From contig JACPOW010000042.1 in NCBI GenBank assembly GCA_016191335.1, positions 1-45,053 on the forward strand: a DNA stretch of 45,053 bases. Direction: 5' to 3'. The notes under the pieces are model-generated. The model searched no databases, was not told the origin of the DNA, and saw only the letters and a list, made by a program, of their open reading frames with translations. A program made the translations under genes and the position numbers. This DNA comes from Elusimicrobiota bacterium. GTDB taxonomy: Bacteria > Elusimicrobiota > Elusimicrobia > UBA1565 > UBA9628. Shown here piece by piece: positions 1-45,053 of this stretch; within the stretch, counting starts at the first letter, position 1, and each line of letters opens with the position of its first letter.

Positions 1-2
1 CG

Positions 3-845
3 CAGATCGCCGAAGCCGGCGTTCGCTGGCTCATGAGTTCTTTACGACGCGACGTGGAGCTCCAGTTCTTCGGCGGCGAGCCCCTGCTGGCGTTGCCGGT
101 CGTGCGCAAGGCGGTGGCCCTCGCCGAGACCTCGGCGCGCAACGCCGGCAAGACCGTGCGTTTCCTGCTCACCACCAACGGCCTGGCGCTCACCGAGGAG
201 GCCGTCTCGTTCCTCAAGGCGCACCGCTTTCATGTCGAAGTGAGCTGCGACGGCACGATGAGCGCCCAGGACGCCCAGCGCCCGACGGCGAAGGGGACGA
301 GCTCGTGGGCGGCGCTGCGCTCCGGCGTGGAGCGCCTGCGCAAGGCGGGCGTCCCGTACCAGGTCATCGCCGTCCTCCTGCCCGAGGACGCGTCCCGGGC
401 CGATGAGCGCGTGGCGGCGCTGGCCGCCATGGGCCACCGCCGCATCCAGATCAACTACGCGCTCGGCCGGCACTGGACCGACGCCCAGGCCGACGCCCTG
501 CGCGAGTCCATGGACCGCGCCGCGGCCGCAGCCGAGCGCCTCGGCGTCGAGCTGGTCAACCTCACGGTCAAGCGTCGCGAGCCGGTGGTCCTCAACAGCG
601 AGCTCACCGTGGACTGCGACGGCACGGTGTACCGCGAGACCGGCGTGTGCCTGGAGGAGGACTTCCAGGAGATGAAGAAGAGGTTCAAGGTGGCGGACAT
701 ACGCAACGCCGGCCTCTTCGAGACCTACGGCGCCACGCCGTTCGACAATTTCGCCATCCTCGCCTCGGCGTACGGCCGCGGCGAGATGCGCCGCACCTTG
801 CTGAGCAACCTCGAGCTGGGCCGGTCCTTCGCGGAGTCGAGATGA
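3..845 (+). CDS. Radical SAM protein, B-type (5' end outside window)
   Basis: The reading frame is open from the first bases, so the gene begins upstream. The N-terminal strand with the CxxxCxxC that binds the catalytic [4Fe-4S] cluster is not in the window. What remains starts just before the GGEP motif (QFFGGEPLL), followed by the TTNG strand and an SxDG loop, all typical of the rSAM TIM barrel. The tail carries the VDCDGTVY segment and an RRTLLSNLELGRSF motif seen in the other B-type enzymes here (7664, 17187, 34912 and the first half of 3018). There are no C-terminal auxiliary-cluster cysteines. It ends in an ATGA overlap with the next gene, so the two are probably co-translated. Family assignment is firm; the substrate is unknown. 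Confidence 0.85.
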   Translation, partial: QIAEAGVRWLMSSLRRDVELQFFGGEPLLALPVVRKAVALAETSARNAGKTVRFLLTTNGLALTEEAVSFLKAHRFHVEVSCDGTMSAQDAQRPTAKGTSSWAALRSGVERLRKAGVPYQVIAVLLPEDASRADERVAALAAMGHRRIQINYALGRHWTDAQADALRESMDRAAAAAERLGVELVNLTVKRREPVVLNSELTVDCDGTVYRETGVCLEEDFQEMKKRFKVADIRNAGLFETYGATPFDNFAILASAYGRGEMRRTLLSNLELGRSFAESR

Positions 846-3028
846 AGGTCCTCCTTCTGAACCCCCGAAATCCCGACCCGCCGCCGGTCTATTTCGGCGC
901 GCCCTACGGCCTGTCCTTGCTCGGCGCCATCCTGAAGACCAAGGGCGTCGAGGTGCTCGGCCGCGACTACACCCGATCCTCCTCGGAAGACATGCTCGCG
1001 GACGCGGAGAAGATCGTCCGCGCGGAGAAGCCCGACCTCGTCGGCATCTCCTGCCAGAGCTCCAACCGCGGCGCGGCCGCGGCGCTGGCGCGCCTGTTGA
1101 AGAAGACGAGGCCGAAGCTCCCGCTCGTCGTCGGCGGCCCCTTCGCCAGCACCGACCCCGAGCTCGTCCTGCGCCGCACCGGCGCCGACTGGGTCGCGGT
1201 CGGCGACGGCGAGGAGACCTTGCCGGAGCTCGCGGACGCGCTGTCCCGCGGCCAGGACCCCCGTCAGGTCGCCGGCCTGGTCTGGTCCGAGGGCGGCGAG
1301 GTCCGCCGCTCCGCCGAGCGCGAGCCCTTCTGCGACCTCGACTCCTTGCCCGACCCCGACTTCGACCTGTTCGACGCCGAGGCCGAGCTCGCCCGGTTCC
1401 GCCGCCCCCGCGCCCAGGACCTGGCCGCCCCCGTCGGCGCCGCCGGCCGCCCGTGCGCGGCGATGCACAGCGCCGTCATGCTCCTCAGCTCGCGCGGCTG
1501 CGTCTACCGCTGCGTGTTCTGCCCGATGAGCACCTTCAAGGGCAAGCCCCGCCTGCTCTCCGCCGGCCTTTTCGTGAGCCAGGTCGCGCGCATGGCCCGC
1601 CGCTACCGCTGGCGCGACTTCGTCTTCGGCGACAACTACTTCACGCGCGACCGGGCGCGCGTCCTCGAGATCTGCGCCGGCCTGCGCCGCGAGGCTCCCG
1701 GCATCCGCTGGATCTGCATGACCCGCGCCGACGCCATGGACCCTGCTTTGGCCCGGGAGATGGCGGCCGCCGGCTGCCGCGAGGTCTCCTACGGCGTGGA
1801 GAGCGGCTCGGCCAAGGTGCAGAAGGCCATCGGCAAGCGCCTGGACCTCGAGCTGGTGACCGCCGCGCTCGCCGCGACGCGCGAGGCCGGCATGCAGGCC
1901 GTGCTCATGCTCATGGTGGGCAACCCCGGCGACGACCTCGAGACCACGCGGGAGACCGCCGACTTCCTGCGCGGCCTGGAGCCCGACCGCGTCCAGGTGC
2001 ACACCACCAAGGTCTACCCCGGCACCGCCATCCACGCCAAGGCCGCCGCCGCCGGCGTGATCCCTCCCGGCTTCTACGACGGCGACGAGCACCGGCCCCC
2101 GCTGTACACCGTCGAGCGCACCGCCGCCCAGCTGGCGGAGATGCAGGTCCTCCTTCCCTCCCGCACCCATTACCTGGAGGCGGGCGCCGGCTGCGTCAAC
2201 GGCTGCTGCTCCCTGCGCAAGCCGGTCTCCAAGAACAAGGCCGTCCTCGCTTCCGCCCTGGCGCAGACCGCCTTCCGCGCGGAGCGCGGCGTCCTGGGCG
2301 GGGGGGAGTCCTTGCTCATCCCCGAGCTCGACGCCGTCCTCGACGACGCGGACGCCCTCCAGGTGTTCGACCTGAGCCTGTACACCACCGCCCGACCGCT
2401 GGCCGACGCCCGCCTGGTCTCCCGCCTGCGCGCCCGCAAGGACACGCGCCGCGTGGTCGTGCCGCTCCTCTCCCCCGACGCCTCCCGCCACGACGCCCGC
2501 GCGCGCGTCCCCGGGGCCCTGACGCAGACCACGGTCGGCCTGCGCCGCTGGGTGCAGAGCGGCGGCGAGGTCCTGGCCTGGCTGCTCCCGATGCCCGAAG
2601 ACCTACCCGGCCTCCCCGCCTGGACCAAGCGCCTCGCCGCCGAGGGCGTGCGCGAGGCCGTGCTCGTCCACCGCGAGCCTCCTCCCGGCTGGGGCGGCCT
2701 GCCCCTGGAGGACACGCCGCGTCTGCGCCCCTTCGCCGCCGCCGCGGCCGAGGCCGCCCTCGCCGCCGAGGACGCCGGCCTGGCCGTGTCCGTGTTCGGC
2801 CTGCCGCCTTGCCTCTGGGACGGCGCGTTGGCCCCGCGCCACGAGGACCGCGCGCTGTACGACGAGGCCGTCTCCGGCGCCGCCGCCCCGGTCACCACCC
2901 GCTCGCGCCGCGCCCCGCGCCAGGCCTTCGCCCCGTCCTGCGCGTCCTGCTCCCGCCGCGCCTCCTGCGACGGCGTCTGGGCCGACTATCTCGCCCGCCA
3001 CGGGGAGGGGGAGCTCCGTGCCCTCTAA
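842..3028 (+). CDS. Cobalamin-binding radical SAM protein with degenerate second rSAM-like half
   Basis: 728 aa starting at the ATG that overlaps the previous stop. Residues 1-150 form a Rossmann-like B12-binding domain (LLLNPRNPDPP, VVGGPFAST, GDGEET at 121-126) without a DxHxxG motif, as in BchE-type enzymes. Residues about 212-420 are an rSAM barrel with C220, C224 and C227 (SRGCVYRCVFC). Residues about 445-700 align by pattern with the A-type rSAMs of this cluster, but the cluster motif is broken (CVNGCC, 451-456) and GGEP is GGGES. The C-terminus keeps the four-cysteine set C657, C700, C703, C709. Known B12-rSAMs do methylations, ring contractions or cyclisations; which one applies here is unknown. 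A strong GGGGAGGGGGA near the 3' end probably serves the next gene. Confidence 0.9.
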   Translation: MKVLLLNPRNPDPPPVYFGAPYGLSLLGAILKTKGVEVLGRDYTRSSSEDMLADAEKIVRAEKPDLVGISCQSSNRGAAAALARLLKKTRPKLPLVVGGPFASTDPELVLRRTGADWVAVGDGEETLPELADALSRGQDPRQVAGLVWSEGGEVRRSAEREPFCDLDSLPDPDFDLFDAEAELARFRRPRAQDLAAPVGAAGRPCAAMHSAVMLLSSRGCVYRCVFCPMSTFKGKPRLLSAGLFVSQVARMARRYRWRDFVFGDNYFTRDRARVLEICAGLRREAPGIRWICMTRADAMDPALAREMAAAGCREVSYGVESGSAKVQKAIGKRLDLELVTAALAATREAGMQAVLMLMVGNPGDDLETTRETADFLRGLEPDRVQVHTTKVYPGTAIHAKAAAAGVIPPGFYDGDEHRPPLYTVERTAAQLAEMQVLLPSRTHYLEAGAGCVNGCCSLRKPVSKNKAVLASALAQTAFRAERGVLGGGESLLIPELDAVLDDADALQVFDLSLYTTARPLADARLVSRLRARKDTRRVVVPLLSPDASRHDARARVPGALTQTTVGLRRWVQSGGEVLAWLLPMPEDLPGLPAWTKRLAAEGVREAVLVHREPPPGWGGLPLEDTPRLRPFAAAAAEAALAAEDAGLAVSVFGLPPCLWDGALAPRHEDRALYDEAVSGAAAPVTTRSRRAPRQAFAPSCASCSRRASCDGVWADYLARHGEGELRAL

Positions 3029-4886
3029 GCCGCCCCTCTCGACGACGCGCTCGGTCATGCTGATGACCACCTACGAGTGCCAGCTGCGCTGCGCCTACTG
3101 CAACGTCTCGCGCGGGCCGCGGCGCATGGACGAGGAGACGGCCCGGCGCGGCGCCGACCTCCTCCTGTCCTCCCGCGCCGGCCACCTCCTCCTCAACTTC
3201 TTCGGCGGCGAGCCCCTCCTGGCCTGGGACCTGGTGAAGAAGACCGCCCTGTACGCCCGCGCCCGCCGCGGCGGCCGCCCTCTGCGCGTCAACCTCACCA
3301 CGAACGGCCTCCTCCTCGACGACGAGAAGATCTCCTTCCTTAAATCCGTGGATGGCTATGTCCACCTCAGCCTCGACGGCCCCGCGGACGCCAACGCCGC
3401 GCGCCTGGCCGGCACCGGCCCGGGCGCGCAGAAGGTGATGGAAGCCGCCCTGCGCCGTCTGGCGGAATCCGGTCTCCCTTATCATGTGAACGCCGTCGTG
3501 ACCCCCGAGCGCGCCGCCGCCTTCGACCAAGACCTCCTCGCCTTGGAGGCCCTGGGCGCTCGCCGCATCCAGTTCGGTTATAAGGTCGGCGTCCTGTGGA
3601 GCTCGGACGCCGTCGCCGCGCTCCTGCGCGCCCTCGACCGCTACGCCGCCCGCGGCAAGGCCGAGCTCAACAACCGCACCTCGGAGAGCGAGCCCGTCAT
3701 GCTCAGCCGCGAGACCATCGTGGACACCGACGGCGGCGTGTATTGGGATGGAGGTATTTTCCTCGAGGCCGCCTTGCCCAAGGCGCGCGCCGCCCTGCGC
3801 CTGGGCCATCTCGACGACGATTTGGATGTCGATTCCCTCGCCGACGATCCCCACAAACCCTACGAGCGCTTCCTCGAAGCGTACCCGGCCAAGACGGAAG
3901 GCCGGCATGTGATCCTCAACAACATCAAGGTCGGCCTCGCCCTCAAGCGCCACTGGACGGGCCAGCGCGGCAACGAGGATCCGGAGATCCGCCGCGGCGT
4001 CGTCCAGGCGGGCCTGGCCGAGCAGGACCGCTTCATCAAAAAGAACATGCCGGGCCTGGACCGCGTGTTCCTCTTCATGAAAGGCGGCTGCGACCTCGAC
4101 TGCCTGTTCTGTAAAAATAAGCCGGAGAAAGATCACCAGTCGCTCGACGAGATAACCGCCGTTTTGGACGAGAACGCCGTGCTGCGTCGAGACAAGATCG
4201 CCTTGGTCGGGAACGAGCCGTTGGCCCATCCGCGAATACTTGATGTCGTTAAGCTGTGCCGCAAGAAGGGCTTCACCGACATCGAGATCATGACCTCGGG
4301 AATGAGGCTCGAGGCCCTCGCCAAGCCGTTGGCCAAAGCGGGAGTCACCTCCTACGCCTTGGCCCTTCACGGCTCCACGGCGAAGATACACGACGCCGTC
4401 GTCCGCCGCCCGGGCTCCTACGCCGCGGCCCTCCGCGGCGCCGCGGCCGCCCAAGCCGCCGGCTCCAGGATCTATCTGCACGCCAGCGCCTGCCGTGACA
4501 ACCTCGCCGACCTTCCCTCTTTAGAGAAGCTCGCCCGCCGCCGCGGCTGGCCCTTCTCCATCCATCCCCTGCGCCCCAAGGACTCCGATGGGATGAATGT
4601 TCCTTACGAACAGATCGCCCCGGACTACGCCGAGCTGCGCGCCGCCCTGACCGGCCGCGTCACCTCGTTGACCGGCTTCCCGTCCTGCGTGGCCTCGCGC
4701 ATACAGGGCCTGGCCTCCTGCCCGGACGGGGAGGTGGCCGACTCCATGAGGCTGTACCTCCGCCACCAGGCCTTCGTGAAGCCCGAGGGCTGCTCCTCCT
4801 GCCCGGAGCGCGACGGCTGCGCGGGCACCTTCGAGGAGCACCTGCGCGCCCGTCCCGCGGAACGCGAGGAGCTCGCCCTCCCATGA
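3018..4886 (+). CDS. Tandem double radical SAM protein (B-type + A-type)
   Basis: 622 aa from a GTG at 3018, which has a strong purine-rich ribosome site just upstream and overlaps the previous gene by 11 bases. The first rSAM domain (about 1-310) has C21, C25 and C28 (CQLRCAYC), FFGGEPLL, LTTNGLLL and VDTDGGVY, but no auxiliary cysteines. The second (about 345-610) has C358, C362 and C365 (CDLDCLFC), GNEP in place of GGEP, and the auxiliary set C557, C592, C595, C601. Both halves look catalytically intact. Elsewhere in the window the same two types are separate neighbours (33593 and 34912), so this gene looks like a fused pair acting on one substrate. Confidence 0.9.
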   Translation: MPSKPPLSTTRSVMLMTTYECQLRCAYCNVSRGPRRMDEETARRGADLLLSSRAGHLLLNFFGGEPLLAWDLVKKTALYARARRGGRPLRVNLTTNGLLLDDEKISFLKSVDGYVHLSLDGPADANAARLAGTGPGAQKVMEAALRRLAESGLPYHVNAVVTPERAAAFDQDLLALEALGARRIQFGYKVGVLWSSDAVAALLRALDRYAARGKAELNNRTSESEPVMLSRETIVDTDGGVYWDGGIFLEAALPKARAALRLGHLDDDLDVDSLADDPHKPYERFLEAYPAKTEGRHVILNNIKVGLALKRHWTGQRGNEDPEIRRGVVQAGLAEQDRFIKKNMPGLDRVFLFMKGGCDLDCLFCKNKPEKDHQSLDEITAVLDENAVLRRDKIALVGNEPLAHPRILDVVKLCRKKGFTDIEIMTSGMRLEALAKPLAKAGVTSYALALHGSTAKIHDAVVRRPGSYAAALRGAAAAQAAGSRIYLHASACRDNLADLPSLEKLARRRGWPFSIHPLRPKDSDGMNVPYEQIAPDYAELRAALTGRVTSLTGFPSCVASRIQGLASCPDGEVADSMRLYLRHQAFVKPEGCSSCPERDGCAGTFEEHLRARPAEREELALP

Positions 4887-5824
4887 TCAAGATCGAGCCC
4901 GCCCGCCGCCTGGAGCTCCACCTCTCCTACACCTGCGGCCAGAAGTGCGGCTTCTGCTCGGAGAGCGTGCGCATGGACCGCTGGCGCCACGCCCCGCTCA
5001 AGGGGGAGGAGATCTCCGCGACCCTCCTCAAGCACCGCAAGGCCGGCTTCAACCATGTCACCTTCACCGGCGGCGAGCCCACGGCCCACCCGCTCCTGCC
5101 GGCCGCCCTCTCCGCGGCGCGCAAGCTCGGCTTCAACACCTACCTCACCACCAACGGCGGCCTGTTCGCGCAGGAGGCCTACGCCCGGGAGGTCCTTCCT
5201 CTCCTCGACGAGGTCTGCCTCTCCGTGCACGGCCCCGACGCCGAGACCCACGACGCCGCCGCGGCGACCCCCGGCTCCTTCGAGCGGGCGATGAAGGCGC
5301 TCGCCAATATCGAGCAGCACGGCGACCGCGTCTACCTCCTCACCAACACCGTCGTCACGCGCGCGAACTGGGGCAGATTAGAAGACACGCTGACTTTGCT
5401 CACCAAGCACCCGAAAATACGCCACATCCTCCTCTCGAGCGTCGCCCCCGAGGGCCGCGCCCTGAAGGACTACAAGGCCCTCGCCGTTCCTCTGTCCCAG
5501 TGGCGAGACCGCGTCCCCGCCCTCGCCCGTCCCTTCGAGACCAATGGGGTCGTGCTGCGGATGTTCGGTCTGCCCCTGTGCGTCCTCGACGGCCGCCCCG
5601 AGCTCTCCAACGACGCTCATTATTCTCCGCGCGTCACCGTCGAGCGCCGCGGCGCGAGATCCAAGCCCGGCCTTGTCGCCATCGCCAGCGCCGACGCCTC
5701 CCGCCGCCGCTCCAAACCCGTCGTCTGCCGCTCCTGCGACGACCGGGGCGACTGCGCCGGCGTCTTCGACCGCTACCTGGCCCTCCACGGCCCCGCGGAG
5801 CTCACTCCCCGGAGGTCCTCCTGA
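4883..5824 (+). CDS. Radical SAM protein, A-type with auxiliary FeS cysteines
   Basis: 313 aa; ATG in an ATGA overlap with the previous gene. C18, C22 and C25 (CGQKCGFC) bind the catalytic cluster, GGEPTAHP is at 63-70, and the TTNG and SVHG loops follow. C233 (LPLC) with C282, C285 and C291 (CRSCDDRGDC) can ligate one auxiliary [4Fe-4S] cluster of twitch or SPASM-like kind. The end motif, a Cys set followed by YLxxHGxxEL, recurs in most A-type enzymes of the cluster. Reaction unknown; rSAM enzymes cleave SAM to a 5'-deoxyadenosyl radical in the cytoplasm. Confidence 0.9.
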   Translation: MIKIEPARRLELHLSYTCGQKCGFCSESVRMDRWRHAPLKGEEISATLLKHRKAGFNHVTFTGGEPTAHPLLPAALSAARKLGFNTYLTTNGGLFAQEAYAREVLPLLDEVCLSVHGPDAETHDAAAATPGSFERAMKALANIEQHGDRVYLLTNTVVTRANWGRLEDTLTLLTKHPKIRHILLSSVAPEGRALKDYKALAVPLSQWRDRVPALARPFETNGVVLRMFGLPLCVLDGRPELSNDAHYSPRVTVERRGARSKPGLVAIASADASRRRSKPVVCRSCDDRGDCAGVFDRYLALHGPAELTPRRSS

Positions 5825-6765
5825 TGGCCACGCTCGCCTACCTCCAGGTCGCCCGCATCTGCAACCAGAAATGCCTGTTCTGCTCCAACCCGGAGAACGG
5901 CCGCGTGATCACCTGGCAGGAAGCCGTCGATCTGGTGGACTCCTTCGCCAAGACCAAGGCCGCGGGCGTCATCATCACCGGCGGCGAGCCCACCCTCTTC
6001 GACCGCCTCCCCGAACTCGTCGCCTACGCCCTCAAAAAGGGCCTTCCTCCTCGCCTCATCACCAACGGCCAGAAGGTCTGCCGCGCCGACTACCTCAAAT
6101 CCCTCGTGGACGCCGGCCTCGACCACATGCACATCTCCGTCCACTCGGCCAAGCCGGAGATCCAGGGCGAGCTCACGGGCAACAAGAACTCCCTTCCGAA
6201 CATACTCAAGGCGTTGGAGAACGCGGGCAAATACAAAGTGCGCGTGGACATCAACACCGTCATCAACGCCCGCAACGCCAACCACCTGTCCTTCACTCCC
6301 CGCTTCCTCGTCGAGCGCTTCCCGTTCCTCCACCACTTCGTCTGGAACAACCTCGACCCGCAGATGAACGCCGCCTCCCTCAACCCGGAATTGGTCCCCA
6401 AGCTCCGGGCCTTCGAGGTCGAGCTGCACAAGGCCATGACCTGGCTCACGAAAGCGGGCAAGAGCTTCCGCGTCGAGCGCGTTCCTCTCTGCTATATGTC
6501 CGATTTCATGCATTTCTCCACCGAGACGCGGAAGTTCGTCAAAGACGAGGGCCGGGACATCTATTTCCTTGACGAGAAGGGCCGCAAGCGTCAGGACAAG
6601 AGCTCCTGGAGCTACGAGAAATCGGAACGCTGCAAGATCTGCAGCGTCGAGAAGATTTGCGCCGGGCTTTACCAGATGGGCAAGTATTACTCGGCCGAGG
6701 AGCTGTGCCCGATCCTCACGCCGGCTGATACGGTCATCGCGAAAGTCCGCGCGGAGGCGTCATGA
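5824..6765 (+). CDS. Radical SAM protein, A-type (paralogue of the gene at 8652)
   Basis: 313 aa. ATG at 5824 sits in a TGATG overlap behind a GGAGGT ribosome site. C13, C17 and C20 (CNQKCLFC), TGGEPTLF at 52-59, ITNGQ at 79-83, auxiliary C223, C270, C273 and C279. It aligns without any gap over about 300 residues with the oppositely oriented gene 8652-9593 (both have CNQKC, WNNLDP, VPLC and IYFLDEKG at the same residue numbers), so the two are duplicates with probably related substrates. Confidence 0.9.
   Translation: MATLAYLQVARICNQKCLFCSNPENGRVITWQEAVDLVDSFAKTKAAGVIITGGEPTLFDRLPELVAYALKKGLPPRLITNGQKVCRADYLKSLVDAGLDHMHISVHSAKPEIQGELTGNKNSLPNILKALENAGKYKVRVDINTVINARNANHLSFTPRFLVERFPFLHHFVWNNLDPQMNAASLNPELVPKLRAFEVELHKAMTWLTKAGKSFRVERVPLCYMSDFMHFSTETRKFVKDEGRDIYFLDEKGRKRQDKSSWSYEKSERCKICSVEKICAGLYQMGKYYSAEELCPILTPADTVIAKVRAEAS

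Positions 6766-9585: not shown

Positions 9586-9593
<8 letters not shown>
8652..9593 (-). CDS. Radical SAM protein, A-type (paralogue of the gene at 5824)
   Basis: 313 aa. The ATG at 9593 follows an AGGAGGT five bases upstream and overlaps the stop of the preceding fusion gene by 8 bases. C13, C17 and C20 (CNQKCTFC), TGGEPTVF, ITNGQ and SVHSS; auxiliary C223, C270, C273 and C279. It is collinear with 5824-6765 and ends the long minus-strand operon, facing its sister block across the convergent terminator. Confidence 0.9.
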
Positions 9594-13074
<3,481 letters not shown>

Positions 13075-13113: not shown

Positions 13114-13120
13114 CCTCCCT

Positions 13121-37649: not shown

Positions 37650-38596
37650 TCCGCCTCGAGCCCGGCGCGGAGGCGGCGGCCTTGCGGGGACGCGTCGCCC
37701 GCCTGCTGCCCGGCGCGACGGTCCGCGCCGGGCAGGGCGTGCTGCGCGTCGCGACGCGGCGCCCCGAGCGCCTCGCCGACGCCCTGCCGCGCCTCGAGAG
37801 CCTGCCCGGCGTGGCGAGCGCGGAGCCGACCTTGGCGGAGGCCTGCCCGCGCGCCTCCCGGGCGAAGGCGCCGTCGCTGCGGGCCTTCCGCAAGGACGGC
37901 CCGATCCTCATCGCGGGGCCGTGCTCGCTCGAGGACGGGAAGTCCTATCTGGCGGCGGCGCGGCGGCTGAAGGCCGCGGGCGCCACCGCCCTGCGCGCGG
38001 GCGTGTTCAAGCCGCGCTCGTCGCCGTACGCCTTCCCGGGGCTCGGCGAAAAGGCCTTCCCCATCCTGCGCGAGGCCCGGCGCGAGACCGGCCTCCCGCT
38101 GGTCAGCGAGGTCCTGTCCGAGCGCCAGCTGGAGACGGTCCTTCCCTTCGTCGACATGGTCCAGATCGGCGCGCGCAACATGCGCAACTACGAGCTGCTC
38201 AAGGCGGCCGCCGCCGCGGGCCTGCCGGTCCTGCTCAAGCGCGCGCCCGGCGCCACGCTCAAGGACTGGCTGCTCTGCGCGGAGTATCTCCTGCGCTACG
38301 GCGACGGCGCGGTGGTGCTGTGCGAGCGGGGGGACTCCTACTCGGGCTCCGCCGCCCGCGGCCTGGACCTGGCGATGATCCGCGCCGCCGTCGCCGCGAC
38401 CGGTCTGCCGGTGATCGCCGATCCCAGCCACGCCAACGGCGAGCGCGCGCGCGTCCCGGGGCAGGCCCTGGCCGCCCTGCGGGCCGGGGCCGCCGGCCTC
38501 CTGATCGAGGCCTGCGCCGACCCCGTGGCCGCGCTCGTCGATGGCCGCCACACCATCTCGCTCGACGACTTCGGCGCGCTCGCCGGGAGGATATGA
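37643..38596 (+). CDS. DAHP synthase-like (class I beta, AroF/AroA-type) protein with altered active-site loop
   Basis: 317 aa from GTG 37643 behind GGGAGG. Residues 1-70 are a small regulatory-type domain; 80-317 are the barrel with AGPCSLED (91-98), KPRSSPYAFPGLGEK (123-137), QIGARN (174-179), LLKR (197-200), CERG (227-230) and DPSH (260-263). DAHP synthase joins phosphoenolpyruvate and erythrose-4-phosphate at the start of the shikimate pathway. The expected CERGIRT continuation is CERGDSYSGS, losing an Arg that binds phosphate in the family, so the substrate may differ. It lies inside a K-D pair, which argues for a role in the pathway of this cluster. Confidence 0.82.
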   Translation: MLIRLEPGAEAAALRGRVARLLPGATVRAGQGVLRVATRRPERLADALPRLESLPGVASAEPTLAEACPRASRAKAPSLRAFRKDGPILIAGPCSLEDGKSYLAAARRLKAAGATALRAGVFKPRSSPYAFPGLGEKAFPILREARRETGLPLVSEVLSERQLETVLPFVDMVQIGARNMRNYELLKAAAAAGLPVLLKRAPGATLKDWLLCAEYLLRYGDGAVVLCERGDSYSGSAARGLDLAMIRAAVAATGLPVIADPSHANGERARVPGQALAALRAGAAGLLIEACADPVAALVDGRHTISLDDFGALAGRI

Positions 38597-38597
38597 C

Positions 38598-39932
38598 ATG
38601 ACGGCCAAGGCTCCCGGCGTGCGCCTCAATCCCCCGTACCTCCACGGGGCCTTCCTGGCCCTCAACGCGATCTCCGACGCCTACTTCCTCGGCGACGGGC
38701 CGGACTGCATCCGCGCGAAAGGGGAGCAGATCCACGGCCGCCACGACCTGTTCTCGACCTTGATGTCGTGCAAGGGCGAGCACCGCATCCACTACACGGG
38801 GCTGAGCGTGTTCAACATCGCCGCGAACCTGGAGGGCGAGATCGCCGCGGGCCTCGAGCGCATCGGCCGGCGCGAGCACTGCGGCGCGGTGTTCATGGGC
38901 TCGGTGCCGATGTGCACGATCGCGGGGACCGATTACGACCGCATCGTGCGCCAGGTGTTCGCCGGCGGCTTCAAGCCCGCCTTCGTCGTGCCGCCCCAGA
39001 TCGGCCTGGCCGGGGACTGGCTCGACGGCTACTCCGCGGTGCTCGAGGCCATGGCCAAGGGCATGGACCTGGACGGCGTCGCGCCGAAGAAGAAGGCCGT
39101 GGCCGTCGTCGGCTACCTGATGGGGCGCAACGAGGGCGACCATCGCGGCAACGTCCGCGAGCTCCACCGCATCCTGCGCGCGCTGGGCCTCGACCCGGTC
39201 TCGACCTGGCTGTCGGGCGGCGACTACGAGTCCCTGCGCGCCGTGCGCGGCGCCGGGACGATCATCGCCTTCGGCCACGGCCGCAAGGCGGCGGCCATAC
39301 TGGGCAAGAGGCTGGGGGTCAAGGTCCTCGACTCCGAACTGCCCTTCGGACTGGCCGCGACGAAGCGTTTCGTCGAGGCTCTCGGCCGCGAGTTCGGCCG
39401 GGAGAAGGAGGCCGCGGCCTTCATCCGCGCCGAGCTCGGCGAGGTCGTCCCCGCTCTCGAGTGGGCGGTGCCCCACGCCTTCCTCGGCCGCCGCTTCGCC
39501 TACGTCGGCGACCCGCATTACGGGGCTCCCTTCGCCGAGATGATCGAGGAGCTCGGGGGGGAGCTCGCGGGGATGATCCTGCTCGGAGGCGAGCGGCATC
39601 TCCCGGCGCCGGCGCGCGCCGCGCTGTCGGCTCGCCCGCGGGTCGTCTTCGAGCCGATGCAGAACGACCTCGCGCGCGACTGGGCCGGCCTCAAGCGCAA
39701 GGACGCGGACGCGCTCGTGGCCACGACGATGGCCGTGGAATTCCTCAAGCCGGAGACGTCGTGGCTCGAGTTCGGCTATCCGTCGGACTACACGCACTTC
39801 CTCAAGGACGAGCCCTTCCTCGGGTTCCGGGGGGCGCTGGGCTTCTGCTCGCGGCTGGCCAACGAGGTGACCAAGGGCTTCTGCCAGGATTGGATGACCC
39901 CCGGGCAGCGGCGCGCCTCGGGCGGCGGCTGA
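38598..39932 (+). CDS. Nitrogenase-like component 1, D-type subunit (pair 5)
   Basis: 444 aa; ATG 38598 two bases after the previous stop, with GGGAGG upstream. C37 (GDGPDC), C58 (LMSC) and C106 (SVPMCTIAGTDYDRI), QIHGRHDLFSTLM, GDWLDGY, LMGRNEGDHRGN and LEFGYPSDYTHFL. Closest to the D subunits of pairs 1 and 4. Its partner is the 35916 K subunit, from which it is separated by the DAHP-synthase-like gene. A 106-base gap follows. Confidence 0.88.
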   Translation: MTAKAPGVRLNPPYLHGAFLALNAISDAYFLGDGPDCIRAKGEQIHGRHDLFSTLMSCKGEHRIHYTGLSVFNIAANLEGEIAAGLERIGRREHCGAVFMGSVPMCTIAGTDYDRIVRQVFAGGFKPAFVVPPQIGLAGDWLDGYSAVLEAMAKGMDLDGVAPKKKAVAVVGYLMGRNEGDHRGNVRELHRILRALGLDPVSTWLSGGDYESLRAVRGAGTIIAFGHGRKAAAILGKRLGVKVLDSELPFGLAATKRFVEALGREFGREKEAAAFIRAELGEVVPALEWAVPHAFLGRRFAYVGDPHYGAPFAEMIEELGGELAGMILLGGERHLPAPARAALSARPRVVFEPMQNDLARDWAGLKRKDADALVATTMAVEFLKPETSWLEFGYPSDYTHFLKDEPFLGFRGALGFCSRLANEVTKGFCQDWMTPGQRRASGGG

Positions 39933-39999
39933 GTGCCGACCGGGGCGCAGATGAGAATAGCCCGGCTCCGCCCGACGCGCTATCCTCTGTGGCAGCAGC

Positions 40000-40012: not shown

Positions 40013-40038
40013 GAGGAGCTCGCCGATCCCGCGGTCCT

Positions 40039-41769
40039 ATGCTCGACAAAAATTCCGAGACTGAAGCGCCGCGATGCAACGGGACGGCCCGGCCCCCGCT
40101 CCGTCGTCTCGGCCGCGACGGCCTCGCCTACGCCCAGGAGCTGCTCGGCGGACCGCCCTCCGGCTGGTCCCTGGAGAAGGCCGCCCTGCGCGGGTCCGCG
40201 CTCGAGTTCTCCTTGGTCAAGGACTCGCGCCGCCTGGAGTTCCGGGCCGAGCGCGGCCCGGCCGGCGGGACGCGCCTCGACCGCCTCGGCCGCGGCGACG
40301 AACCGGCGGACGACGAGCGCGCGCTGGCGTCCGCCCTCGCCGCGGGGCTGGCCGCGACGGAGTTCGCCGGAGCGCTGGCGCGCCTGAGCCGGGACGCGCT
40401 GCACTACTGCGACTCCTCCGGCGGCTCGGTCCCGTCGCGCTTCGAGCGCTACTACCGCGTCGTGGACCACTCGGCGGGCTGGTGGAGGTTCGTCCATCCC
40501 GAGACCCGCTTCCTCGAGCAGGAGGTCCGCTTCGGGCGGCGCTACGCCCAGATCAGCCACGCGACGCTCGAGTGCAACCTCAACAACCCCAAGCTCGAGG
40601 TCGCGCCGCTGCGCTTCTTCGCCGGCGACGAGCGCCCGCGCTCGGCCGAGGGCGACTACTCGTACCACGACACGGACCTCGGCGAGGCGGACGTCGTCGG
40701 CGGACGGACGCAGGAGATCCTGGGCCAGGCGCTCGACAAGGTCGCCCGTGAGGAGAAGCCCGCCTTCATCCACCTGAAGACGACCTGCCTGCCCGAGCTC
40801 GTGGGGGACACCCCGGTCCCGTTCATGGCCCGCATCGAGTCCGAGCTGGGGGTGCCGGTGCTGTGGACCTCGAAGACGCACGACTCCGGCCCGGTGTACG
40901 AGGGGATGGTCGAGCGCCTCCTCGGCGAGATCGAGTTCTCGGCGGTCCGCGACCCCCGGGCCGTCCTGCTCGCCGGCGTCCCCTCGGCCCTGGCGCTCGA
41001 GGAGGCCGCGGAGCTGTGCGCCGAGGCGGGCCTGCGCGTGGCGGGCTCCGTGTTCCCGAACCTCGATTTCGACGCGTCCCCGGAGATGCGGTCCGCGAGC
41101 GCGGTCGTGTGGTACGACCCCGTGGGCTGGGCCAAGATCGACGACGGCGCGTTCCTGCGGCGCGGCCTGCGCGTCGTGCGCTTCCACCCGCCCTATGGCC
41201 TCGCCGGGACGCGCGCCTGGCTGCGGCGCATCGGCTCCGTGCTGGGCCTGGAGGGCGCGGGGGCCGGCGACCCTCCGTCCTTGCGCGCCGCCGCGGCCGA
41301 CTTCGAGGCGCTGGCCGTCCGGTGCCGGCGGCGCACCGTCGCGCTCGCGGGGGACGCGGCCGACGTCGAGCTGCTGACCTCGTCGGGACGCGCCTTCGGC
41401 TTCTCCGTCGCGGGGCTGCTCTGCGAGCTCGGCTTCAACGTGCGCTGCCTGGTCCATACGACGGCCCGGGGCGCGGCGGCGCGGGCGCTGGTCCGGCCGC
41501 GGACCGCCAGCGGGGCGGGGACCATCGAGTTCCGCCCGTTCTCGTCGCGCGCCGCGCTCGACCGGCAGCTCGGCCGGGGCGTCGACCTGGCCTTCACCCA
41601 CTTCAACCACGACCCGCGCCTCGAGGCGCACGGGCTGCGGGGCTTCAACGACCGCGCCTTCGAGCCCGGGCTCGACGGGCTGCTCCGGACCGGACGCGCG
41701 CTGCTCAGGCGGTGCGAGTCCCGTCCCTTCCCGCGCCATCGCGACGGGCTGGCGCCGTGGGCGTCATGA
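40039..41769 (+). CDS. Nitrogenase-like component 1, K-type subunit (pair 6)
   Basis: 576 aa from ATG 40039; the frame closes upstream at 40012 and no well-placed ribosome site is seen. Accessory domain about 27-118 (LAYAQELLGG, GWSLEKAALRG). C179 (ATLEC) and C250 (LKTTCLPELVGDT) match the K-type cysteines, with GDT replacing the usual GED/GDD. It lacks the GEHF and YSDIFFDWR motifs of pairs 1, 4 and 5. The most divergent K subunit, yet in the same K-then-D order. ATGA overlap with its D gene. Confidence 0.83.
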   Translation: MLDKNSETEAPRCNGTARPPLRRLGRDGLAYAQELLGGPPSGWSLEKAALRGSALEFSLVKDSRRLEFRAERGPAGGTRLDRLGRGDEPADDERALASALAAGLAATEFAGALARLSRDALHYCDSSGGSVPSRFERYYRVVDHSAGWWRFVHPETRFLEQEVRFGRRYAQISHATLECNLNNPKLEVAPLRFFAGDERPRSAEGDYSYHDTDLGEADVVGGRTQEILGQALDKVAREEKPAFIHLKTTCLPELVGDTPVPFMARIESELGVPVLWTSKTHDSGPVYEGMVERLLGEIEFSAVRDPRAVLLAGVPSALALEEAAELCAEAGLRVAGSVFPNLDFDASPEMRSASAVVWYDPVGWAKIDDGAFLRRGLRVVRFHPPYGLAGTRAWLRRIGSVLGLEGAGAGDPPSLRAAAADFEALAVRCRRRTVALAGDAADVELLTSSGRAFGFSVAGLLCELGFNVRCLVHTTARGAAARALVRPRTASGAGTIEFRPFSSRAALDRQLGRGVDLAFTHFNHDPRLEAHGLRGFNDRAFEPGLDGLLRTGRALLRRCESRPFPRHRDGLAPWAS

Positions 41770-42974
41770 CCACGGTCGAGGAGAGGGAGGAGGTCGTCCG
41801 CCTGCCGTTCCTCAACGGCGTCTACGTCGCCGTGGACGCGCTCTCCGACGCCTACCTCGTCGTGGACGGCCCGTACTGCGTCTTCACCAAAGCCGAGATG
41901 CAGTACTGCCACAACATCCGCTGCCGTCTGCTCCCGCCGGTCGGCCATCGCCGCATCGTGCACACCGGGCAGGTCCAGGACCGCGAGGAGGTCCGCAGCC
42001 TCTCCACCGACCGGAACGCCCAGGTCGACGCCGTCTTCGCGGGCGTCTGCGCACAGCCCGACGCGGGCATCGTGCTGTCGACGACCTTCGACTTCCACGA
42101 GCTCGTGGGCTTCCCGATGAAGGAGGTCGCGCGCCGTCACGCGCGGCCCGGCGGGCCGCTCACCTGCCACGTCCCGTCGCGCTCGCTCGGCGGCGGCTGG
42201 CTCGAGGGCTACGCGCGGACCTGCGAGGCGCTGGCCCGGAGCGTGGCCCTGCGCCCGGGGAAGCGCCGCAAGGGCTCCGTCGCGGTGGTCGGCTACCTGT
42301 TCGACCGCGACGAGCCCGACCACGCCGGCAACCTCCGGGAGCTGAAGCGGCTGCTGTCCGCCCTGGGCCTGCGCACGGAGTCGGTGTGGCTGTCCGGCGG
42401 AGGGCGCGCCGGGCTCGAGGCGGCGGAGCGCGCGGCCCTCATCGTCTCCTTGCCGTACGCCCGCGAGGCGGCCCGCGTCGTCGCCGGGCGCACCGGCGCG
42501 GCGCTCGTCGAGGCGGACCTCCCGCTCGGCCTCTCCGCCACCGACCGCTTCCTGCTCGCGGTCGGGGCCCGCTCCGGCCGCCGCCGCGAGGCCGCGTCGC
42601 TCGCCGCCGCGGAGAGCCGCTCCGCGGTGCGCGACACGCAGTCGCACGTGCTGCGCGTGATCGCCGGGAACGGCGCCGCGGTGCTGCAGGACGACCCGCA
42701 CCTCGACGCGCGCCTGCGCGAGCTGTGCGCGGAGCTGGGGATGGCCGTCGAGCCGCCGCCCGCCCCCGGCGCGGCGGACCGCCGCGTCCACTTCGCGCCG
42801 ACCGCGCAGGCCTTCCCGTCCGGGACACTGCACGTGCCGACCGGCTATCCGAACTACCTGGAGCACCCCGTGGCGGAGCGGCCGTTCCTGGGCTACGCCG
42901 GCTTCCGGCACCTCGTCGACCGCGTCGCCGCGCGCGTCCTCCTCGCCGAGACGCCCGAGGAGAGCCAGCCGTGA
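41766..42974 (+). CDS. Nitrogenase-like component 1, D-type subunit lacking one cluster cysteine (pair 6)
   Basis: 402 aa, the shortest D subunit. C38 (VDGPYC) is kept, but the second conserved cysteine (MC before the GTDYDRI-like segment) is gone: the region reads STTFDFHELVG. Extra cysteines occur after C38 (EMQYCHNIRC), which could substitute or bind something else. GGWLEGY, LFDRDEPDHAGN and PTGYPNYLEHPV follow D-type order. Overlaps the NifH-like gene as GTGA. Confidence 0.83.
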   Translation: MTTVEEREEVVRLPFLNGVYVAVDALSDAYLVVDGPYCVFTKAEMQYCHNIRCRLLPPVGHRRIVHTGQVQDREEVRSLSTDRNAQVDAVFAGVCAQPDAGIVLSTTFDFHELVGFPMKEVARRHARPGGPLTCHVPSRSLGGGWLEGYARTCEALARSVALRPGKRRKGSVAVVGYLFDRDEPDHAGNLRELKRLLSALGLRTESVWLSGGGRAGLEAAERAALIVSLPYAREAARVVAGRTGAALVEADLPLGLSATDRFLLAVGARSGRRREAASLAAAESRSAVRDTQSHVLRVIAGNGAAVLQDDPHLDARLRELCAELGMAVEPPPAPGAADRRVHFAPTAQAFPSGTLHVPTGYPNYLEHPVAERPFLGYAGFRHLVDRVAARVLLAETPEESQP

Positions 42975-43813
42975 AGGCCCGGCCCCTGACCATCGTCGTC
43001 TACGGGAAGGGCGGCGTGGGCAAATCCACCACCTGCGCGCATCTCGCGATGGCATTCGCCCGGGAGGGGCGCAAGGTGCTCCTGCTGGGCTGCGACCCCA
43101 AGGCCGACTCGTCGCTGCGCCTGCTCGGGGGCCGGCGCCCGCCGACCATCGTGGACATGGTGACGGGGCTCGAGGGCGAGGAGTTCCGCCGCCTGGTGAC
43201 GCGCAGCCGTCCCGGCCTGGACGTGCTGGAGACCGGCGGGCCGCCGCCGGGCCAGGGCTGCGGCGGCCGCAGCGTGGCCACCCTGTGCCAGTACCTCGAG
43301 GCGCACGCGCGCGAGCTGAGCGCCTACGACACCTTGATCTTCGACGTGCTCGGCGACCTCGTCTGCGGCGGCTTCGTCGCCCCGCTGCGCTTCGGCCTGG
43401 GCCGCGACGTGTACATCGTCTCCTCCGAGGAGACGGCGTCGCTGTTCGCCGCGAACAACATCGTCAAGGTGGCCTCCGCGCCCTACCACGAGGGGGTCTT
43501 CGTCGGCGGCATCATCTTCAACCTGCGCCAGAACGACGCGCGGCCCGAGCTGCTCGAGGCCTTCGCCGCCCGCCTCGGCGTCGGCGTCACGGCCGTCATC
43601 CCCCGCGACGAGGACATCCTCGACTCGGAGGAGCTCGGCCTCACCGTCTTCGAGCACGCGCCCAAGGGCGCGGCGGCCGCCCGCTTCCGCGCGCTGGCGG
43701 CGGCGATCCAGGCGCGGACGGGCGCGGTGCCCGGCGCCTCGGCGCGGGCGATGCCCCCCGACGAGTTCGCCGAGTTCACGCGCGGGCAGAGGATCTACAG
43801 GAGAGCGAAGTGA
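42971..43813 (+). CDS. NifH-type iron protein, divergent copy
   Basis: 280 aa from GTG 42971, with GAGGAG eight bases upstream. P-loop YGKGGVGKST (11-20), CDPKADSS (41-48), C97 (GQGCGGRSV) and C132 (LGDLVCGGF), the two cysteines that hold the cluster at the dimer interface. GCGGRS replaces the GCAGRG of the other three NifH domains here. MgATP hydrolysis coupled to one-electron transfer is the family role. Being coupled to pair 6, it may serve that pair. Confidence 0.92.
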   Translation: MKARPLTIVVYGKGGVGKSTTCAHLAMAFAREGRKVLLLGCDPKADSSLRLLGGRRPPTIVDMVTGLEGEEFRRLVTRSRPGLDVLETGGPPPGQGCGGRSVATLCQYLEAHARELSAYDTLIFDVLGDLVCGGFVAPLRFGLGRDVYIVSSEETASLFAANNIVKVASAPYHEGVFVGGIIFNLRQNDARPELLEAFAARLGVGVTAVIPRDEDILDSEELGLTVFEHAPKGAAAARFRALAAAIQARTGAVPGASARAMPPDEFAEFTRGQRIYRRAK

Positions 43814-44640
43814 GCATGGAAAACAACATCGTCGTGTTCGGGAAGGGCGGGATCGGCAAGTCCACCATCTCCTCGAACCTCAGCTCGGTCTACGCGCTGC
43901 AGGGCCTCAAGGTCCTGCACGTCGGCTGCGACCCCAAGCACGACAGCACGCTCGGGCTCGTCGACGGCGAGCTCATCGAGACCTTCATGGAGAAGTACTC
44001 CCGCATCTTCGGGGTGCGCGACCACGGCGAGCTCAAGGCGTCCGACCTCATCGTCAAGGGCCGCCTCGGCATCGACTGCGTCGAGGCCGGCGGCCCGGAG
44101 CCGGGCGTCGGCTGCGCGGGCCGGGGGATCTCCCTGATGCTCGAGGCGCTGCAGGACCTCGGCGTGCTGAAGGCCGGAGGCTACGACGCGCGCGTCTTCG
44201 ACGTCCTCGGCGACGTCGTCTGCGGCGGCTTCGCCGCGCCGCTGCGCAAGGGCTTCGCGGAGAAGATCGTCATCGTGGTCTCCGAGGAGCTGATGGCGCT
44301 GTACGCGGCCAACAACATCGCCAAGTCCGTGAAGACCTACTCCTCGAACGGCGTCTACCTCGCGGGCCTGGTGGCCAACCTCAAGGACGGCAAGGTCGAG
44401 CGCGAGAAGCTGGAGCGGTTCGCCGAGATCCTGGGCACCCGCATCCTGGAGTTCGTGCCCCGCGACCCGGCCGTGCGCAAGGCGGAGTTCGCCCGCAAGA
44501 ACACCGTCGTCGAGATGGCGCCGAAGAGCCCGTTCACGAAGAGCATCGAGTCCCTGGCGAAGAAGATCCTGGCGGTCCGCCGGGAGGACTGCCCGATCCC
44601 CACGCCGATGGACGACCGCCGGTTCTACAAGGGATGGTGA
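43810..44640 (+). CDS. NifH-type iron protein
   Basis: 276 aa. GTG at 43810 (GTGA overlap, AGGAG six bases upstream) is preferred over the ATG at 43816. GKGGIGKST (11-19), CDPKHDST (40-47), C102 (GVGCAGRG) and C138 (LGDVVCGGF), SSNGVYLAGLVANLKD, and a C-terminal PIPTPMDDRRFYKGW. Its sequence is close to the NifH half of the 19955 and 23636 fusions. It is the best candidate for the shared electron donor to the pairs that have no NifH of their own (1, 4, 5). Confidence 0.93.
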   Translation: MSMENNIVVFGKGGIGKSTISSNLSSVYALQGLKVLHVGCDPKHDSTLGLVDGELIETFMEKYSRIFGVRDHGELKASDLIVKGRLGIDCVEAGGPEPGVGCAGRGISLMLEALQDLGVLKAGGYDARVFDVLGDVVCGGFAAPLRKGFAEKIVIVVSEELMALYAANNIAKSVKTYSSNGVYLAGLVANLKDGKVEREKLERFAEILGTRILEFVPRDPAVRKAEFARKNTVVEMAPKSPFTKSIESLAKKILAVRREDCPIPTPMDDRRFYKGW

Positions 44641-44650
44641 GCGCGACGAC

Positions 44651-45053
44651 ATGACCGCTGTCCTCTACTACGGCGTCTTCGTGGGGCTGGCCTCGCTGAT
44701 CTCCTTCGAGGACTGGCGCACGCGCAAGATCCGCAACCGGCTGATCGCCGCGGGCCTGCTCGCCTGCGCGGCGGGCCTGCTGCTCCTCCTCGTCAACAGC
44801 CTGCTCGGCGCGCGCCACCTGCGCTTCGGGCCGCTGGGCGAGTACTCCCTGCCGCTGAGCTTCTACCCGAGGCTCGCGCTGCACGCCGTCCTGAGCCTCG
44901 CCGCGGGCGTCGGGTTCTGGCGCTGGGCGATCTGGCCGGCGGGGGACGCGAAGTTCTTCGCCCTGGCCGCGCTGTTCGCGGCGCTCATCGACCCGAACCT
45001 GCCCGGCTTCCCGCTGCTGCTGTTCCTGATCCTGCTCATCAACATCTTCGTGC
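44651..45053 (+). CDS. Prepilin-peptidase-like (A24) membrane protein, 3' end outside window
   Basis: ATG at 44651, open to the window end (134 codons seen). Hydrophobic segments at about 3-19, 32-52, 76-95 and 103-133. D21 in FEDWRTRKIRNRLI and D99 in PAGDAKFF fit the two catalytic aspartates of A24 aspartic peptidases (the second normally in GxGDxK). Family members cleave leader peptides of type IV prepilin-like proteins at the inner membrane. It may be an unrelated next gene, or process a peptide product of the cluster. Ten bases separate it from the NifH gene. Confidence 0.75.
   Translation, partial: MTAVLYYGVFVGLASLISFEDWRTRKIRNRLIAAGLLACAAGLLLLLVNSLLGARHLRFGPLGEYSLPLSFYPRLALHAVLSLAAGVGFWRWAIWPAGDAKFFALAALFAALIDPNLPGFPLLLFLILLINIFV

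What the first reader, a model, noticed from the sequence alone, without database searches (positions are those of the whole stretch)
1..45053. A single cluster with six nitrogenase-like K-D pairs, four NifH domains and 15 radical SAM genes
I count six complete K-D component-1 pairs, two NifH fused and two free, among 15 rSAM genes, all with tight overlaps. Known systems of this fold (Nif, DPOR/COR for chlorophyll, CfbCD for F430, methylthio-alkane reductase) use one or two pairs. No nifB, nifV or tetrapyrrole-building gene is seen. This looks like an assembly line for an unknown reduced metabolite or cofactor; the link to groundwater Elusimicrobia is from memory.
Basis: partly seen in the sequence, partly recalled or inferred. 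Interest (0 to 1): 0.93.

Follow-up and report, generated by a model that had tools for sequence, protein, structure and literature searches.

The report
Nitrogenase-like enzymes beside repeat-peptide machinery
An uncultivated bacterium carries at least seven pairs of nitrogenase-like enzymes next to genes for a histidine-serine repeat peptide and its modifying enzymes, which suggests that these enzymes help to build an unusual modified peptide rather than fix nitrogen or make a chlorophyll-like pigment.

Summary
In detail: six adjacent component-1 pairs, four NifH domains and 15 radical SAM genes on one Elusimicrobiota contig. A seventh pair lies on contig C95, placed at the right end by synteny. 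The family is in print as "group VI" nitrogenase homologues, tentatively linked to tetrapyrroles (passages of PMC11257099 and PMC9391474, citing Meheust 2020, not held). The pairs form two clades apart from the Nif and Bch references; the genome shows no NifB; FeMo-co ligands and most P-cluster cysteines are missing, so I infer one [4Fe-4S] cluster per pair. New here: the contig abutting the left end encodes a His-Xaa-Ser repeat precursor (HxsA4, 147 bits, cut-off 55) and its maturase HxsB (508, cut-off 370). HxsA4 occurs in 27 of 29 pair-bearing relatives against 25 of 118 others, and, over cut-off, in 33 of 35 against 21 of 74 relatives of a Myxococcales genome. Five pair-bearing genomes lack HemB and HemC yet match HxsA4. 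One genome without pairs keeps HxsA4, HxsB and similar radical SAM genes. Best reading: a RiPP-type His-Xaa-Ser system to which ATP-driven reductases were added. The chemistry, and action on the peptide, are inferred.

The parts
3..845 (+). r1, radical SAM (closest to a peptide maturase model), N-terminus on contig C56
   Evidence: Pfam 37 bits (read from 54); nif11 rSAM 118.9 bits, below cut-off; C56 tail encodes residues 1-111
842..3028 (+). r2, B12-binding radical SAM
   Evidence: ApyD 160.9 bits, below cut-off
3018..4886 (+). r3, tandem radical SAM
   Evidence: two CX3CX2C motifs
4883..5824 (+). r4, radical SAM, HxsC4-like
   Evidence: 100.5 bits, below cut-off
5824..6765 (+). r5, radical SAM, HxsC-like
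   Evidence: 89 bits, below cut-off
6762..7667 (+). r6, radical SAM, HxsC4-like over nearly its full length
   Evidence: 157.2 bits; cut-off 500
7655..8521 (+). r7, radical SAM
8652..9593 (-). r8, radical SAM, similar to r5
9586..13074 (-). NodU-type carbamoyltransferase + 4Fe-4S + radical SAM fusion
13195..14115 (-). r11, radical SAM, HxsC4-like
14112..15425 (-). S1, short (K-type) component-1 subunit
15415..17190 (-). Lg1, long component-1 subunit
17187..18209 (-). r14, radical SAM, PapB/HxsB-like
18209..18673 (-). unknown 154-aa protein with homologues in related loci
18670..19962 (-). S2, short component-1 subunit
19955..22282 (-). HLg2, NifH fused to long component-1 subunit
22285..23649 (-). 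S3, short component-1 subunit
23636..26272 (-). HLg3, NifH fused to long component-1 subunit
26269..27789 (-). PD40 beta-propeller protein with a CXXCH motif
27786..28319 (-). RidA family protein
28330..29370 (-). r22, radical SAM, HxsC4-like
29595..30692 (+). r23, radical SAM with SPASM domain
30689..32302 (+). Lg4, long component-1 subunit
32295..33596 (+). S4, short component-1 subunit
33593..34924 (+). r26, radical SAM, HxsC4-like
34912..35916 (+). r27, radical SAM, PapB-like
35916..37649 (+). Lg5, long component-1 subunit
37643..38596 (+). DAHP synthase family protein
38598..39932 (+). S5, short component-1 subunit
40039..41769 (+). Lg6, long component-1 subunit
41757..42974 (+). S6, short component-1 subunit
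42971..43813 (+). Ha, free NifH-like protein
43816..44640 (+). Hb, free NifH-like protein
44651..45052 (+). N-terminal third of a 400-aa prepilin-peptidase-like membrane protein; the rest appears to be on contig C95
   Evidence: Pfam 18.7 bits, below cut-off 26.5

Best explanation
The window is the middle of a His-Xaa-Ser (HxsA4/HxsB type) RiPP-like locus to which nitrogenase-like reductases have been added. Shown by sequence: the contig that abuts the window's left end encodes HxsB and a 189-aa HxsA4 precursor (leader plus repeats with 33 Ser-His-Gly units); the window holds 15 further radical SAM genes, 13 of the 14 scanned being closest to models of peptide-modifying systems, six S/Lg pairs and their NifH partners; a seventh pair follows on the right. 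Inferred: each S/Lg pair carries one [4Fe-4S] cluster at its interface (two Cys from Lg, one from S, perhaps an acidic or second S ligand) and, charged by its NifH with ATP, passes low-potential electrons to residues of the repeat peptide that radical SAM enzymes have cross-linked, methylated or dehydrogenated. The carbamoyltransferase and methyltransferase would add further groups, and the prepilin-peptidase-like membrane protein would cut the leader. Different pairs would act on different intermediates. Confidence: about 0.85 that the reductases belong to the HxsA4/HxsB system, about 0.6 that they act on the peptide.
For: HxsA4 and HxsB over curated cut-offs in the own genome, on contig C56, whose tail encodes residues 1-111 of the truncated r1 while the window encodes 126-404. 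G018:C25 and G016:C5 carry HxsB, HxsA4, a 154-like gene, an r14-like gene, r1, r2 and r3 in a row; in G016 the contig goes on through r4-r7, S3, HLg3, r22, r14, S2 and HLg2 (L034). HxsA4 (E <= 0.001) in 27 of 29 pair-bearing genomes against 25 of 118 others, Fisher 5e-13; over cut-off 26 of 29 against 20 of 118; within family f1 20 of 21 against 9 of 23, p 8e-5; in 15 of the 27 both lie on one contig, 1.2-25.6 kb apart. Relatives of a Myxococcales genome: over cut-off 33 of 35 against 21 of 74, p 2e-11, and 20 of 20 with S matches over 300 bits; at E <= 0.001 34 of 35 against 40 of 74, p 1e-6. Of 25 genomes behind 26 chosen loci, 24 match HxsA4, 22 over cut-off. HxsA4 and HxsB lie in the same stretch as a pair in L076 and L086. 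G005, 98% complete and without a PF00148 match, has HxsA4 and HxsB over cut-off and r7-, r4-, r11-, r5- and r6-like genes plus the peptidase-like gene. Five pair-bearing genomes lack HemB and HemC.
Against: Association does not show that the peptide is the substrate. HxsA4 is common without pairs, above all in the Myxococcales set (54 of 109 over cut-off). Two of 29 pair-bearing genomes (G023, 97% complete; G071, 73%), one Spirochaete (G165) and G214 have no HxsA4 match. Fisher tests ignore shared ancestry. Fifteen of the 35 S-match genomes in the Myxococcales set score only 67-211 bits and may hold other nitrogenase-like proteins. No window radical SAM gene scanned reaches any NCBIfam radical SAM cut-off; models of tetrapyrrole enzymes (AhbD, NirJ, AhbC) are among the next-best matches, for example 86 against 157 bits for r6. 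Only 6 of the 73 relatives' loci show four or more H-x-S repeats within the stretch held. No precedent is known to me for a nitrogenase-like enzyme acting on a peptide. In G000 the precursor is on another contig, placed by a split gene and synteny, not by sequence overlap; in G016 its repeat tract is frame-shifted in the assembly. DAHP synthase and RidA fit a small aromatic building block as well.
Confidence: 0.6

Rival explanations
1. The pairs reduce a tetrapyrrole, possibly forming a new cofactor (the published suggestion for group VI).
For: Homology to DPOR, COR and CfbCD; two papers repeat the suggestion (passages); a B12-domain radical SAM gene is in the window and some neighbours match BchE weakly over its N-terminal part; AhbD and NirJ models are among the next-best matches of several radical SAM genes; the own genome has HemB and HemC.
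Against: Five of 29 pair-bearing genomes, 92-100% complete, have neither HemB nor HemC yet match HxsA4. No tetrapyrrole-building gene is in the window; the TP_methylase-like gene beside pair 7 is closest to RsmI (67.3 bits, below cut-off 167.9). Salvaged tetrapyrroles are not excluded, and the five genomes are of one divergent family.
Confidence: 0.12
2. Two systems share a neighbourhood: a His-Xaa-Ser peptide system, and a separate pathway in which the pairs make a small reduced aromatic or other metabolite.
For: DAHP synthase and RidA genes here and side by side in G028:C57 near HxsA4 and a pair; carbamoyltransferase, methyltransferase and B12 radical SAM genes as in natural product clusters; HxsA4 often occurs without pairs.
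Against: Linkage recurs in Elusimicrobiota and Deltaproteobacteria/Myxococcota and beside a single pair in L132; no gene of the loci has the DAHP synthase as best match.
Confidence: 0.18
3. The repeat peptide is a histidine-rich metal, cofactor or electron carrier made for or used with the reductases, rather than their substrate.
For: Dozens of His-Gly-Ser repeats could bind metal; the prepilin-peptidase-like protein and TPR proteins fit an exported or assembled polymer.
Against: HxsA4, HxsB and similar radical SAM genes occur without any PF00148 match in G005.
Confidence: 0.15

Closest known systems
Group VI nitrogenase homologues of groundwater Elusimicrobia and Myxococcales (Meheust et al. 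2020, recalled; seen only as cited in passages of PMC9391474 and PMC11257099)
   Same: Nitrogenase paralogues with many radical SAM genes in Elusimicrobiota, and relatives in Myxococcales (recalled; taxa agree)
   Different: The published function guess is tetrapyrrole modification; here a His-Xaa-Ser precursor and HxsB are found with the cluster
His-Xaa-Ser system (HxsA/HxsB/HxsC; Haft and Basu, cited in a passage of PMC9062424)
   Same: HxsA4 precursor and HxsB maturase over curated cut-offs on the abutting contig; HxsC-like radical SAM genes
   Different: Many more radical SAM genes, none of those scanned in the window over the HxsC cut-offs, and nitrogenase-like pairs with NifH
DPOR / COR (BchLNB, BchXYZ)
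   Same: NifH-type ATPase plus a two-subunit component 1; few conserved cysteines
   Different: S and Lg are separate clades; component-1 NCBIfam scores are at most 46.4 bits against cut-offs of 324 and more
Methylthio-alkane reductase and isethionate reductase (MarBHDK, IsrBHDK)
   Same: Nitrogenase-like with a radical SAM gene; Mar (9FMG) is the best PDB match of the Lg profile, 104 bits
   Different: Mar holds P- and [Fe8S9C]-clusters and a NifB-like MarB (passages of PMC12552129); here most P-cluster cysteines and NifB are missing. Mar and Isr sequences were not in my tree
CfbCD (coenzyme F430)
   Same: NifH domains score 224-278 bits against the CfbC model, below its cut-off of 402
   Different: No CfbD match over cut-off in 147 genomes; here two different subunits, S and Lg

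Membership tests
Nitrogenase (Mo, V, Fe) | NifD/NifK clade | tested here: not met
   S 17 rows one clade 100/98, Lg 17 rows one clade 100/99, apart from the NifDKEN references (55 rows)
Nitrogenase (Mo, V, Fe) | FeMo-co ligands Cys275 and His442 of NifD (numbering recalled) | tested here: not met
   None of 14 own S/Lg proteins has them at the aligned columns; these loops align poorly and Mar uses another loop (passage of PMC12552129)
Nitrogenase (Mo, V, Fe) | Six P-cluster cysteines | tested here: not met
   Lg keeps two (17 of 17), S one (17 of 17, shifted one column); a second S Cys in 8 of 17
Nitrogenase (Mo, V, Fe) | NifB in the genome | tested here: not met
   G000 no match; over cut-off only in G084 of 147
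DPOR / COR | BchNB or BchYZ equivalog score and clade | tested here: not met
CfbCD | CfbD model | tested here: not met
   0 of 147 over cut-off; own genome 23.9 bits
Group VI nitrogenase homologues | Clade of the published group VI sequences | not testable with these tools
   Paper and its sequences not held
Group VI nitrogenase homologues | Groundwater Elusimicrobia and Myxococcales, many radical SAM genes | tested here: met
   the definition itself is recalled
His-Xaa-Ser system | HxsA repeat precursor | tested here: met
   L175:9554-10123, 147.4 bits, cut-off 55
His-Xaa-Ser system | HxsB maturase | tested here: met
   L175:8045-9541, 508.5 bits, cut-off 370
His-Xaa-Ser system | HxsC maturase | tested here: not met
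   Best of the 14 window genes scanned: r6 113.4 (HxsC, cut-off 267.9) and 157.2 (HxsC4, cut-off 500); rest of the genome not searched, so it is called a variant, not a canonical HxsABC member
His-Xaa-Ser system | Chemical modification of the repeats | not testable with these tools
   needs mass spectrometry

The most novel reading that the evidence does not exclude
The nitrogenase superfamily has a peptide branch: ATP-driven S/Lg/NifH reductases act on a ribosomally made His-Xaa-Ser repeat peptide, seven or more pairs serving successive reductions in one RiPP pathway, in Elusimicrobiota and Myxococcota.
Probability: 0.5. Interest if true: 0.95.

Novelty: new variant of a known kind. Interest (0 to 1): 0.84.

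Why it matters
Nitrogenase-like enzymes do some of the hardest reductions in biology, and one large group has had no function beyond a guess. Tying that group to a named precursor peptide and maturase gives a concrete substrate to test, would extend nitrogenase chemistry to peptides, and would give RiPP biosynthesis a low-potential, ATP-driven reductive step.

Tried and rejected
Tetrapyrrole reading: HemB and HemC absent in 5 of 29 pair-bearing genomes. The TP_methylase hit on C95 looked like support for it until NCBIfam put it nearest RsmI. NifH tree (24 rows): poorly resolved, group VI rows not one clade, no CfbC reference; not used. Small window ORF at 13121-13213: not in the 25 clusters printed by the small-ORF comparison; not used. 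Prepilin-peptidase-like protein: no convincing PDB relative by sequence; the GxGD reading rests on Pfam (one copy over cut-off), two conserved Asp and recall. Papers: Meheust 2020 not held; (at least one of His-Xaa-Ser, nitrogenase) lists 15 rows, all with nitrogenase alone; one search found two papers with His-Xaa-Ser and radical SAM, one of which (PMC9062424) has no 'nitrogenase' in its text, the other not opened; the ten rows listed hold no HxsA. First gene calls for some relatives were wrong and were redone with homology training. Rows dropped before the 29-genome count: of 38 genomes with PF00148 matches, nine (G032, G038, G042, G064, G068, G069, G086, G088 weak; G084 a true nitrogenase). 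Distances use only the PF00148 matches that one search listed; one search scored at most 11 candidates a genome, so pair counts per genome are lower bounds.
Full report
What is there. The window is a whole 45,053-base contig (C30) of a 3.66 Mb, 94% complete genome. My gene caller gave 35 genes (the starts at 13074 and 7655 were then corrected and relatives, and one 25-aa call was dropped), and Pfam confirmed six adjacent component-1 pairs, four NifH domains and 15 radical SAM genes. Each pair has a short subunit (S, 405-454 aa) and a long one (Lg, 537-878 aa); two Lg proteins begin with a NifH domain. Fourteen of the 15 radical SAM genes show CX3CX2C (one of them twice); the fifteenth, r1, is cut by the contig start. 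All four NifH domains keep the P-loop and two conserved cysteines at the cluster-ligand positions (positions recalled). Paralogous subunits are 25-63% identical in protein, and the 12 longest DNA self-matches are 71-76% identical, so this is not a repeat artefact.

Beyond the window. Contig C95 carries a seventh pair (S7 and a NifH-Lg fusion, HLg7) with TPR proteins, an RsmI-like methyltransferase and two radical SAM genes. The last window gene is the N-terminal part, and the end of C95 the C-terminal part, of a 400-aa membrane protein that is intact in relatives; no sequence overlap joins the ends. On the left, the tail of contig C56 encodes residues 1-111 of r1 and the window residues 126-404, each aligned to the intact gene of G016 (99 of 111 and 257 of 279 identical). 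So the order C56 - window - C95 reversed is well supported but not closed by sequence. One search scored only 11 of 18 candidates in this genome, so seven pairs is a lower bound.

Which family. S subunits form one clade (17 rows, 100/98) and Lg another (17 rows, 100/99), apart from NifDKEN, BchNB and BchYZ (55 rows; the tool warns of long branches for the Bch rows). Component-1 NCBIfam scores stay at or below 46.4 bits against cut-offs of 324 and more. Against PDB sequences the S profile is closest to an Fe-only nitrogenase beta subunit (73 bits) and the Lg profile to methylthio-alkane reductase (104 bits; 9FMG identified from a passage of PMC12552129). CfbD is not over cut-off in any of 147 relatives. 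CfbCD, Mar and Isr sequences were not in the tree. By taxon and make-up this is the group VI nitrogenase homologue that PMC11257099 and PMC9391474 (passages) cite from Meheust et al. 2020 as possibly involved in tetrapyrrole modification; that paper is not held, so I could not test its sequences. Named relatives (73 loci) are mostly Elusimicrobia, Myxococcales/Myxococcota and other Deltaproteobacteria, with one Spirochaete and one Bdellovibrio MAG.

Metal centre. At the aligned FeMo-co ligand columns none of the 14 own S/Lg proteins has the Cys or the His. Of the P-cluster cysteines, Lg keeps two in 17 of 17 and S one in 17 of 17, shifted by one column; a second S cysteine is in 8 of 17, and Lg6 alone of the Lg rows has a Cys in the first column. 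NifB is not found in the own genome and is over cut-off in only one of 147 relatives, G084, which has a true nitrogenase. I infer one [4Fe-4S] cluster per heterodimer, as in DPOR but with a different split of ligands (DPOR's ligands recalled). Caution: Mar binds its large cluster with a different loop (passage of PMC12552129).

The tetrapyrrole idea tested. HemC occurs in 83 and HemB in 82 of 147 relatives. In the own family 42 and 43 of 44 genomes have them, with or without pairs. But five pair-bearing genomes of family f15 (G094, G102, G118, G127, G143; 92-100% complete) have neither, while a sixth, G126, has both. De novo tetrapyrroles can therefore hardly be the general substrate; salvage is not excluded.

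The peptide. Comparing small ORFs around the loci, the largest cluster was a family of five: a charged leader (...SEEGK...), a hydrophobic stretch, then Ser-His-Gly repeats. NCBIfam calls them HxsA4; four of five pass the cut-off of 55 bits, the fifth has 52. The own genome has one on C56 (189 aa, 33 SHG units, 147.4 bits) next to HxsB (508.5 bits, cut-off 370), about 3.2 kb from the contig end that meets the window. A direct scan of the 73 loci found four or more H-x-S units in six. HxsA4 and HxsB also lie in the same stretch as a pair in two Deltaproteobacteria (L076: 62.8 and 511.8 bits; L086: 63.0 and 516.0), and HxsB in a third (L090, 527.3). In G016 the repeat tract is frame-shifted in the assembly.

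Association. In 147 relatives HxsA4 (E <= 0.001) is in 27 of 29 pair-bearing genomes and 25 of 118 others (Fisher 5e-13); over cut-off 26 of 29 against 20 of 118; within family f1 20 of 21 against 9 of 23 (8e-5); in 15 of the 27 both lie on one contig at 1.2-25.6 kb. Nine of the 38 genomes with any PF00148 match were left out as weak or, in one case, a true nitrogenase. Among 109 relatives of a Myxococcales genome, 33 of 35 with an S match (E <= 1e-10) have HxsA4 over cut-off against 21 of 74 (2e-11); at E <= 0.001 it is 34 of 35 against 40 of 74 (1e-6), so the background there is high. The 20 with S matches over 300 bits all have it over cut-off; the other 15 are weaker and may hold other nitrogenase-like proteins. 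Of 25 genomes behind 26 loci that I chose out of 73, 24 match HxsA4, 22 over cut-off; the Spirochaete does not. Exceptions in the first set: G023 and G071. These tests do not correct for ancestry.

Core and add-on. G005 (98% complete, no PF00148 match) has HxsA4 and HxsB over cut-off, genes like r7, r4, r11, r5 and r6 and the prepilin-peptidase-like gene in one stretch. So the peptide system is probably the core and the reductases the addition, from one pair in the stretch read (L132) to seven here. Of 14 window radical SAM genes scanned with NCBIfam, 13 have a model of a peptide-modifying system (HxsB, HxsC, HxsC4, PapB, nif11, mycofactocin, ApyD) as the best radical SAM match, one (r23) a tungsten-cofactor maturase; all are below cut-off, and tetrapyrrole enzymes such as AhbD and NirJ are among the next matches. 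r8 was not scanned.

How it may work (inferred). Radical SAM enzymes cross-link, methylate or dehydrogenate the His-Xaa-Ser repeats; NifH-charged S/Lg pairs deliver low-potential electrons to these products; a NodU-type carbamoyltransferase (in four other loci a family whose one scanned member is OTC-type) and methyltransferases decorate them; RidA clears reactive enamine by-products; the protease-like membrane protein, with two acidic residues conserved, trims the leader. Only the gene content and associations are shown.

Novelty. Both halves are described families. I found no held paper that connects them: one search's 15 listed rows hold nitrogenase alone, PMC9062424 does not mention nitrogenase, and one search's listed rows hold no HxsA; the searches are capped lists and Meheust 2020 was unread. 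I rate it a new variant of a known kind whose bold reading, peptide-acting nitrogenase relatives, would be a new functional branch.

Noticed in passing
window 44651-45052; L027:12087-12869; L032:17543-18745: A 400-aa prepilin-peptidase-like membrane protein (conserved Asp21 and WPAGDAK) occurs in many of the Elusimicrobiota loci read, also in L190 where the genome has no nitrogenase-like match.
   Followed up: partly
window 37643-38596 and 27786-28319; L180:1835 and 2971: A DAHP synthase family gene and a RidA gene lie in the cluster here and side by side in G028:C57 near HxsA4 and an S/Lg pair; possibly an aromatic building block.
   Followed up: no
window 9586-13074; L044:3088-4299 and its BLAST family in L113, L115, L118: Two unrelated carbamoyltransferase families (NodU type; OTC type by Pfam on L044) recur in different versions of the cluster, hinting that the product is carbamoylated.
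   Followed up: no
L036:14217-17304; L042:8443-14284: Other nitrogenase-like pairs, outside the S and Lg clades, occur in relatives G028 and G051 near the same kind of cluster.
   Followed up: partly
genome of L101 (G164): A Deltaproteobacteria MAG shows 16 matches to the S profile (where at most 16 candidates were scored).
   Followed up: no
window 26269-27789: PD40 propeller protein with a signal-like start and a CXXCH motif, a possible exported heme protein in the cluster.
   Followed up: no
L176, L187, L191; L136, L194: A second HxsA4 type with a C-terminal RGGWC sits with other radical SAM genes in stretches where no pair was called (L176, L187, L191), but also near pairs in family f15 (L136; G118:C42).
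   Followed up: no
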